A stretch of 43,314 nt of DNA from a virus. The stretch covers positions 1-43,314 of IMG/VR virus record IMGVR_UViG_3300025914_000023, one strand, 5' to 3'. Below are positions 33,244 to 34,880 of the stretch, piece after piece (position 1 is the first letter of the stretch; each line of letters opens with the position of its first letter). Below the pieces are notes generated by a model. It ran no database searches. It had not been told where the DNA came from and saw nothing but the letters and a program-made list of their open reading frames with translations. A program made the position numbers and the translations under genes.

Positions 33244-33275
33244 GGGGGACCCGGCTATGCCGGCCGAGCCCCCCT
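33244..33275. terminator. GC-rich hairpin after tRNA-Thr
   Basis: GGGGG-AC-CCGGC ... GCCG-A-GCCCCC forms an imperfect stem followed by TTT on the plus strand, between the tRNA-Thr 3' end and the zinc-finger gene. Could end leftward tRNA transcription or shield the 3' end. Confidence 0.45.
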
Positions 33276-33277
33276 TT

Positions 33278-33350
33278 GTCGCGCCCCCGATTCGAACGGG
33301 GGACCAACGGCTTACAAGGCCGTAGCTCTATCCAACTGAGCTAGCGTGAC
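33278..33350 (-). tRNA. tRNA-Thr (anticodon TGT)
   Basis: Reads GTCACGC acceptor, TAGCTC..GAGC D arm, an ACGGC/GCCGT anticodon stem with loop CTTGTAA (anticodon TGT, Thr), and T arm CCCCGTTCGAATCGGGG. The acceptor stem has one A-C mismatch at 4:69. CCA is not encoded. The 73-nt length is normal. Leftward, downstream of the permuted tRNA pieces. Confidence 0.9.
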
Positions 33351-33407
33351 AGTGTTCGGCATTCCTCCGGCGTCGTCGACCGCCCGTCCTCAGGCTGAAT
33401 CTACTGT

Positions 33408-33432
33408 CGCTCTGCCATTGAGCTAGGGGGCA
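33408..33432 (-). tRNA. 5' half of a permuted tRNA (acceptor strand and D arm)
   Basis: TGCCCCC-TA-GCTC-AATGGCA-GAGC-G is a perfect 5' acceptor strand plus consensus D arm. The sequence that follows on the minus strand shows no matching anticodon stem or proper T arm. Its acceptor strand pairs 7/7 with GGGGGCA of the 3' half located 26 bases upstream. See the paired entry at 33459-33507. Confidence 0.6.
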
Positions 33433-33458
33433 ACGAAACCGGCTGCGTACGACCGGCT

Positions 33459-33507
33459 TGGCTGCCCCCGCGGGACTCGAACCCGCATCTCCAGGTGTTG
33501 GGACCTT
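33459..33507 (-). tRNA. 3' half of a permuted tRNA (anticodon-like arm, T arm, acceptor, CCA)
   Basis: Minus strand, in order: AAGGT-CCCAAC-ACCTG hairpin, GAGAT variable loop, GCGGG-TTCGAGT-CCCGC T arm, GGGGGCA acceptor strand, discriminator G and encoded CCA. Joined after the 5' half at 33408-33432 it gives a ~71-nt cloverleaf plus CCA. The anticodon loop is only six bases, so identity is uncertain. U1-A72 with G73 is Gln- or Asn-like, while the loop contains CCA. Alternatively this is an attP core copied from a host tRNA 3' end. Confidence 0.6.
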
Positions 33508-33567
33508 CGGCGACTAGCTGCGTTCTCCTGCCTGTGAAGCTGAGGGGTAAAAATCTGAGACTGGTTC

Positions 33568-33588: not shown

Positions 33589-33634
33589 CTTTACGCTGAA
33601 GCTGACGCTGAGTTTGCCCCTATGGGAGCGTGAC

Positions 33635-33666: not shown

Positions 33667-34416
33667 TTAGCCGTGGATGAAGTCAAAGAGCGTTTTTCCA
33701 AAGCCCTTCTGCTCGACGGCGTCGATGTTGTTGGCCCGCTGGCGCGCTTCCTTCGCGCCGCGGATGAGCTGATCGATCCGCTCCAGCAGGTCGGATTTCT
33801 GAGCGGGGCTGAGCATCCCAGATTGTTTGGTGACCTCCTTCTTGGCCACCGGCACATCCTTCGAAACCGCCTGGACCTGGGCTTTGTGTTCCTTCGTCGC
33901 GGGCGAAAGCTCGATCGGGATGAGGGTGTTGGCGGTCACGTGGCGAAGCTCCGGCTCGGCCGTGCGGTAGACGTCCGCCCCGCTCTCCGGGTCCTGTTCC
34001 CACTTGAGGCCCGGCGCCAGCGTCGGGATCGCCTCGTACATCGAGCGTAGCTCTTTCAGCTTGCTCTCCAGGCCCAGCAGGACGGTCGCGGGCAGGTTGG
34101 GCAGGAGCACGACGCCATTGACGACAAGGTCAGCGGAGGCCGAGCGGTTGGTCGCCTCTTTCGACGCGTACACGTCCCAATAGCGGGCCACGAACGGCGC
34201 GACATAGTCCAGCTTGTCCTGAACGGTCGTCACCATGGCCGTGCTCTCGGTCATGTTCAGGTGCGCCTGCGCGTCGTCGAAGTAGGTCGTGACGATGTGT
34301 TCCGCCATAAACAGGGTAGGCTTCTTGGCGAAGGTGTCGCGGGCTTCGTCGATGATCTTCTTGGCGGTCCCGGCGAGGTCGCCTTCTACGGCGATGACCT
34401 CGTGCAGCTTTCCCAT
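33667..34416 (-). CDS. Conserved phage protein of unknown function, 249 aa
   Basis: Opens MGKLHEVIAVEGDLAGTAKKI, an opening I associate with a widespread phage family of unknown function. The N-terminal half (FMAEHIVTTYFDDAQAHLN, VQDKLDYVAPFVARYWDVY) and a central leucine-rich segment precede a Lys/Glu-rich, probably disordered region. Single leftward gene flanked by an operator-like dyad upstream (34453) and a strong hairpin downstream. Function unknown. Confidence 0.75.
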   Translation of the reverse strand: MGKLHEVIAVEGDLAGTAKKIIDEARDTFAKKPTLFMAEHIVTTYFDDAQAHLNMTESTAMVTTVQDKLDYVAPFVARYWDVYASKEATNRSASADLVVNGVVLLPNLPATVLLGLESKLKELRSMYEAIPTLAPGLKWEQDPESGADVYRTAEPELRHVTANTLIPIELSPATKEHKAQVQAVSKDVPVAKKEVTKQSGMLSPAQKSDLLERIDQLIRGAKEARQRANNIDAVEQKGFGKTLFDFIHG

Positions 34417-34788: not shown

Positions 34789-34809
34789 GTTCAGCTCCGC
34801 AAGATTGTT

Positions 34810-34880
34810 GGACGCGACGGGGATCGAACCCGCTTTCGCCGACTATAAGTTCCGGCTAGGCGAACCATCGCCTCGCGCCC
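34810..34880 (-). tRNA. Atypical tRNA-like gene, possible attP region
   Basis: Acceptor GGGCGCG/CGCGTCC pairs throughout (one G-U), and the T arm GCGGG-TTCGATC-CCCGT is good. The D arm folds as GGCGA-TGGT-TCGCC with only a four-base loop, and the anticodon arm GCCGG...TCGGC has a nine-base loop (AACTTATAG, possibly Ile TAT). No CCA. Either a divergent phage tRNA, a decaying one, or host tRNA sequence kept as attP beside the integrase. Confidence 0.6.

What the first reader, a model, noticed from the sequence alone, without database searches (positions are those of the whole stretch)
33408..33507. Permuted tRNA: 3' half encoded upstream of its 5' half
On the minus strand an anticodon-like arm, variable loop, T arm, acceptor strand GGGGGCA, G73 and encoded CCA are followed, after 26 bases, by TGCCCCC, U8-A9-like TA and a consensus D arm. 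The acceptor strands pair 7/7 and the joined pieces give a normal ~71-nt tRNA; neither half is complete alone. The outer flanks also contain complementary CTGAGG/CCTCAG. Read the other way, the rest of the phage genome sits inside the tRNA between D and anticodon arms. That is what imprecise excision of a prophage from a tRNA gene would leave. It could be a functional permuted tRNA, rare in bacteria and phages, or an att relic. The six-base anticodon loop is a weak point.
Basis: partly seen in the sequence, partly recalled or inferred. Interest (0 to 1): 0.75.

Follow-up and report, generated by a model that had tools for sequence, protein, structure and literature searches.

The report
Phage tRNA-mimic RNA beside DUF7873
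A phage carries a small RNA gene whose core is a transfer RNA written in swapped order; the same kind of RNA sits directly behind one unexplained protein gene (DUF7873) in phages and many bacteria, which suggests the two form an overlooked RNA-protein particle that imitates tRNA.

Summary
On the minus strand, T arm, acceptor strand and encoded GCCA precede acceptor strand and D arm, with 7/7 acceptor pairs. It is not an att relic or chance. It belongs to a family encoded directly downstream of DUF7873 (here 33667-34416). My detector found the module on the DUF7873 strand in 84 of 95 viral loci and 70 of 80 bacterial loci (Streptomyces, other actinobacteria, cyanobacteria, myxobacteria), never on the opposite strand and never in shuffles. 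A covariance model trained without the window gives it 60 bits, E=4e-14. Without using acceptor pairing as a criterion, 56 of 67 viral elements pair 7/7 (null mean 1.6, maximum 8). A functional tRNA is unlikely: family members lack conserved U33 and purine 37, the window's anticodon-like helix is weak (3/5), and bacterial versions close the acceptor stem with a 6-7-nt loop and usually lack CCA. The nearest known relative is YrlA, the permuted tRNA mimic that binds Ro60. Rfam YrlA scores this family 32-43 bits (cut-off 69), and the window has no Ro60 gene. Best reading: a YrlA-like tRNA-mimic RNA that partners DUF7873 instead of Ro60. The partnership is inferred from gene order; function untested.

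The parts
33667..34416 (-). DUF7873 (PF25283) gene, 249 aa; putative protein partner
   Evidence: Pfam E=3e-67; AlphaFold model pLDDT 89.6, long helices plus a long beta hairpin, no confident PDB match; the module lies downstream of it in nearly all relatives. That it binds the RNA is inferred from gene order.
33616..33621 (-). 5' strand of upstream helix (AGGGGC), within the conserved motif CTCCCATAGGGGCAAACTCA
   Evidence: seen in relatives L141, L142; pairing better than re-paired null across 68 elements, 20 with 6/6 WC against null mean 3.2, max 10; window itself 5 WC
33543..33548 (-). 3' strand of upstream helix (ACCCCT)
33491..33495 (-). anticodon-stem-like 3' strand (CCTGG), followed by 4-nt variable region AGAT 33490-33487
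   Evidence: only 3/5 pairs in the window, 5/5 in 40 of 76 family members against null mean 5.4
33470..33486 (-). T arm (GCGGG TTCGAGT CCCGC)
   Evidence: CM R1
33463..33469 (-). acceptor-like 3' strand GGGGGCA
   Evidence: 7/7 with 33426-33432; family covariation
33459..33462 (-). discriminator G plus encoded CCA
   Evidence: N73-CCA encoded in 82/89 phage modules against 9/43 ordinary tRNAs within 700 nt downstream of DUF7873
33433..33458 (-). 26-nt spacer, predicted to extend the acceptor-like stem as a hairpin
   Evidence: RNA fold; relatives have spacers of about 3-79 nt
33426..33432 (-). acceptor-like 5' strand TGCCCCC
33409..33425 (-). U8-A9 and D arm (TA GCTC AATGGCA GAGC)
   Evidence: CM R1
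33403..33407 (-). anticodon-stem-like 5' strand ACAGT
   Evidence: weak in the window
33390..33399 (-). tail motif TTCAGCCTGA, resembling the recurrent TNAGNNTGA after the D arm in relatives
   Evidence: by inspection; not tested statistically
33276..33351 (-). ordinary tRNA-Thr(TGT) that follows the module; relatives have a tRNA or tRNA fragment there
33244..33273 (-). terminator-like GC-rich hairpin that ends the cluster
   Evidence: read from sequence; relatives show similar hairpins, several followed by T runs; not tested with a terminator scan

Best explanation
The element is the core of a structured noncoding RNA made directly downstream of DUF7873. Its core is a circularly permuted tRNA-like module: T arm, acceptor-like stem closed by the spacer hairpin, then D arm. 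Helices outside it join the two ends, and an upstream domain precedes it. It works like the bacterial Y RNA YrlA: the module imitates the elbow and acceptor end of tRNA so that tRNA-handling proteins bind it, while another part is held by a dedicated partner protein. The likely partner is DUF7873, in the place Ro60 has in YrlA particles. Shown: the module, its covariation, its presence downstream of DUF7873 in phages and bacteria, and the absence of Ro60 from the window. Inferred: that DUF7873 binds the RNA, that the module stays unspliced, and which host proteins it recruits.
For: 84/95 viral and 70/80 bacterial DUF7873 loci have the module on the same strand and 0 on the other; the CM recovers most of the misses. 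Acceptor strands pair 7/7 in 56/67 viral and 37/43 bacterial elements found without that criterion (null means 1.6 and 5.0). End-joining helix 5/5 in 40/76, null mean 5.4, max 14. Window: 60 bits, E=4e-14 with a CM trained without it. Rfam YrlA matches several family members over its full length at 33-43 bits and the window's core at 32 bits, in the range of Ro60-linked phage YrlAs (25-49 bits). Bacterial members close the acceptor stem with a 6-7-nt loop and mostly lack CCA, so no free 3' end is needed. Positions 33 and 37 are not tRNA-like. YrlA is a known circularly permuted tRNA mimic (PMC11472068, PMC8394870). No Ro60 in the window.
Against: No direct evidence that DUF7873 binds this RNA; its fold matches no known RNA-binding protein confidently. 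The strong retention of CCA in phages (82/89) is not explained by simple mimicry of the tRNA elbow and could mean processing to a free 3' end. The window's end-joining helix is weak (3/5).
Confidence: 0.62

Rival explanations
1. Two-piece tRNA-like RNA in the manner of permuted tmRNA: RNase P cuts before TGCCCCC and 3' processing frees the CCA end, giving two RNA pieces held together by base pairs, possibly aminoacylated, without splicing.
For: N73-CCA encoded in 82/89 phage modules against 9/43 neighbouring ordinary tRNAs; permuted tmRNA genes in bacteria are processed into two pieces (PMC10085705); many short spacers are A-rich and end in TAT before the acceptor strand (by inspection).
Against: Bacterial members mostly lack CCA and have a 6-7-nt closing loop; in some phages the CCA could pair with TGG just before the 5' strand (by inspection); no shared isotype signal, discriminators are T37 G23 A20 C9; no tmRNA match to the window at Rfam's cut-off.
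Confidence: 0.17
2. Permuted tRNA gene that is cut and ligated (or circularised) into a working decoding tRNA.
For: Consensus T and D arms, encoded CCA, and an anticodon-stem-like helix that covaries.
Against: No conserved U33 or purine 37; window stem 3/5; joined halves give inconsistent isotypes; bacteria are not known to have the splicing endonuclease used by permuted algal and archaeal tRNAs (general knowledge).
Confidence: 0.07
3. A true Ro60-binding Y RNA (YrlA) that uses the host's Ro60.
For: RF02553 match to the core, 32 bits; upstream GTCGCCGAAGGT resembles the CGAAG motif of Ro60-linked phage YrlAs.
Against: CGAAG is not kept in the DUF7873-linked relatives inspected, so it is probably chance here; no TROVE in the window; at most 3 of 48 DUF7873 phage records have any TROVE match, against 22 of 24 YrlA records.
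Confidence: 0.1
4. Attachment-site relic: a host tRNA split by imprecise prophage excision.
For: The phage has a tyrosine integrase 1.6 kb away.
Against: The arrangement is conserved across unrelated phages and chromosomes with differing sequences; no exact 31-nt host match; another tRNA-end-like sequence lies nearer the integrase (34791-34842).
Confidence: 0.01

Closest known systems
YrlA, bacterial Y RNA (Rfam RF02553)
   Same: Circularly permuted tRNA-like module (T arm, acceptor-like hairpin, D arm) enclosed by an end-joining helix; several family members align to the full YrlA model at 33-43 bits.
   Different: Below Rfam's cut-off of 69; linked to DUF7873 instead of Ro60/TROVE; no conserved CGAAG Ro motif seen; phage members encode N73-CCA; bacterial loci often carry two modules in tandem (31 of 80).
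Two-piece (permuted) tmRNA
   Same: Acceptor 3' part with CCA encoded before the 5' part, with an intervening segment.
   Different: Canonical D arm, no shared alanine-type acceptor signal seen, no confirmed tag reading frame, no Rfam tmRNA match at the cut-off.
Circularly permuted tRNA genes of red/green algae and archaea
   Same: 3' half encoded upstream of 5' half.
   Different: Those yield decoding tRNAs through a bulge-helix-bulge splice site and splicing endonuclease (PMC3978253); here the anticodon loop is not conserved.

Membership tests
YrlA (bacterial Y RNA) | Permuted T arm / acceptor-like stem / D arm module | tested here: met
YrlA (bacterial Y RNA) | Rfam RF02553 gathering score (69 bits) | tested here: not met
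   32.2 bits; but Ro60-linked phage YrlAs also fall short, at 25-49 bits
YrlA (bacterial Y RNA) | Basal stem with Ro60-binding sequence | tested here: inconclusive
   GCCGAAGG present in the window but not kept in relatives inspected
YrlA (bacterial Y RNA) | Encoded with or used by a Ro60 (TROVE) protein | tested here: inconclusive
   No TROVE in the window record, which may be incomplete; host Ro60 unknown
Permuted decoding tRNA | Acceptor, D and T arms of one tRNA, in swapped order | tested here: met
Permuted decoding tRNA | Anticodon stem and loop with U33 and purine 37 after joining | tested here: not met
   for the family; window stem 3/5
Permuted decoding tRNA | Ligated mature tRNA is produced | not testable with these tools
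   needs RNA sequencing
tmRNA | Match to Rfam tmRNA at its cut-off | tested here: not met
   no match in the window at gathering score
DUF7873-linked permuted tRNA-like RNA (defined here) | Module on the same strand, roughly 100-350 nt downstream of DUF7873, and match to CM R1 | tested here: met
   T arm 184 nt after the stop; 60 bits, E=4e-14

The most novel reading that the evidence does not exclude
DUF7873 and its tandem permuted tRNA-like modules form an undescribed RNA-protein particle, widespread in Streptomyces, cyanobacteria and phages, in which the phage version is processed to a free CCA end and can be aminoacylated: a two-piece permuted tRNA of bacteria and phages.
Probability: 0.18. 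Interest if true: 0.9.

Novelty: new variant of a known kind. Interest (0 to 1): 0.72.

Why it matters
It ties a protein family of unknown function, present in phages and many bacterial chromosomes, to a specific tRNA-mimic RNA, and so gives DUF7873 its first testable role. It also shows that permuted tRNA modules are a recurring RNA building block found with at least two different neighbouring protein genes (Ro60 and DUF7873), and that phages carry both kinds.

Tried and rejected
Att relic: rejected by conservation and by no 31-nt host match. Plain YrlA with Ro60: first favoured, then demoted when DUF7873 linkage appeared and TROVE was absent. Group I intron (permuted intron-exon): no Rfam match, and many elements lack the G expected before the 3' exon. 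tmRNA tag reading frame (ANSASASA in the window): not kept in relatives read by eye. Tandem identical tRNAs: a real false-positive source for CM R1 (e.g. the tRNA-Lys array in L110), but no complete tRNA overlaps the window element. A generic test of the upstream helix was not significant (17 elements with 7 or more pairs against null mean 12, max 20); a context-anchored version was. Structure searches of DUF7873: no Foldseek match with E below 0.001; the best VIA match is a protein of unknown function (3kdq, Z 9.2, rmsd 7.1, 146 residues). No PADLOC, NCBIfam or PDB sequence match for DUF7873. The key YrlA papers (Chen 2014, Wang 2018) are not in the library, and DUF7873 occurs in no held paper.

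Full report
Observation. The minus-strand sequence 33495-33403 reads, in order, anticodon-stem-like strand, variable region AGAT, T arm, acceptor strand GGGGGCA, G-CCA, 26 nt, acceptor strand TGCCCCC, TA and D arm. All seven acceptor pairs form. Neither ARAGORN nor Rfam reports a tRNA here; they find only the ordinary tRNA-Thr about 50 nt further on.

First lead. A permissive Rfam scan matched the core to YrlA, the bacterial Y RNA (E=4.5e-5, 32 bits, cut-off 69). YrlA contains a circularly permuted tRNA mimic and tethers Ro60 to PNPase (PMC11472068, PMC8394870). A pattern search found about two dozen clear phage YrlAs, and 22 of 24 of these records encode a TROVE/Ro60 protein. The window encodes none.

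Second lead. The gene just upstream, DUF7873, has relatives in Rhizobium, Vibrio, Klebsiella, Serratia, Gordonia, Arthrobacter and cyanobacterial phages. Reading the gap downstream of DUF7873 in these phages showed permuted tRNA modules with different acceptor sequences, often two or more in tandem. The Lak phages and one Microcoleus phage showed none.

Systematic test. DUF7873 searches brought 80 viral contigs and 80 bacterial loci. A detector requiring T arm, D arm and at least 6/7 acceptor pairs found the module on the DUF7873 strand in 84 of 95 viral loci (the window included) and 70 of 80 bacterial loci, never on the opposite strand, and never in 3.5 Mb of shuffled sequence. Because that detector assumes acceptor pairing, I repeated the test without it: 56 of 67 viral and 37 of 43 bacterial elements still pair 7/7, against null means of 1.6 and 5.0 and maxima of 8 and 12. 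The helix joining the two ends, also not assumed by the detector, is 5/5 in 40 of 76 elements against a null mean of 5.4 and maximum of 14. Covariation on a 32-sequence alignment is strong, but that alignment was chosen for pairing.

Window as a member. A covariance model built without the window scores it 60 bits, E=4e-14. The model also rings on YrlAs and on tandem copies of the same tRNA, so membership rests on the score together with synteny: DUF7873, upstream motif, module, ordinary tRNA, terminator-like hairpin, the same order as in its close relative L155. The window's end-joining helix is only 3/5.

tRNA or mimic? In the family, T at position 33 occurs in 42% and T at position 37 in 32%, unlike real tRNAs. 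Bacterial modules close the acceptor stem mostly with a 6-7-nt loop and encode CCA in only 12 of 101. These facts favour a mimic. Against this, phage modules encode N73-CCA in 82 of 89, while ordinary tRNAs within 700 nt downstream of DUF7873 do so in 9 of 43. That keeps a processed, two-piece form open as a rival.

DUF7873. The AlphaFold model is confident (pLDDT 89.6) and shows long helices with a long beta hairpin; no solved structure matches it convincingly. Its role as RNA partner is inferred from gene order only.

Relation to YrlA. Rfam's YrlA model aligns over its full length to several DUF7873-linked RNAs at 33-43 bits, as high as the Ro60-linked phage YrlAs. At RNA level the two groups are therefore related or convergent; they differ in the linked protein. 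TROVE is nearly absent from DUF7873 phages (at most 3 of 48) and DUF7873 from YrlA phages (1 of 24). I could not read the founding YrlA papers; from memory, Chen et al. 2014 reported Y RNAs in many bacteria and phages, so some DUF7873-linked RNAs may already have been counted there.

Noticed in passing
window 34791-34842 (-): T arm plus acceptor end of a tRNA-like sequence (GCGGGTTCGATCCCCGT CGCGTCCA) between DUF7873 and the integrase; possibly the real attachment-site core or a decayed tRNA.
   Followed up: partly
L198, L209, L211, L215, L189, L196, L157, L218 downstream of the module: Where no complete tRNA follows the module, many loci carry a D-arm-plus-anticodon-arm fragment with a 7-nt anticodon-like loop, just before a terminator-like hairpin.
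   Followed up: partly
L049:2631-2703, L051:1425-1491, L076:5-78, L055:8176-8246, L129:3875-3944: Records with a Ro60-linked YrlA often give a second hit to the permuted-module model nearby.
   Followed up: no
window 33616-33543 (-) and relatives: Six-nucleotide periodic motif (such as GTCAGC TTCAGC) between the strands of the upstream helix; in actinobacteria CTGA/TCAG-rich strands. Meaning unknown.
   Followed up: partly
L179; Klebsiella phage Centimanus (L152:3013-3096): ARAGORN reports tRNAs with anticodon TTA near DUF7873; in L152 the call overlaps the permuted-module region and may be spurious.
   Followed up: no
Rhizobium phage RHph_TM30 (NC_070966.1: 140589-141332): This phage carries a TROVE protein about 7 kb from its DUF7873 locus, so both kinds of partner gene can occur in one genome.
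   Followed up: no
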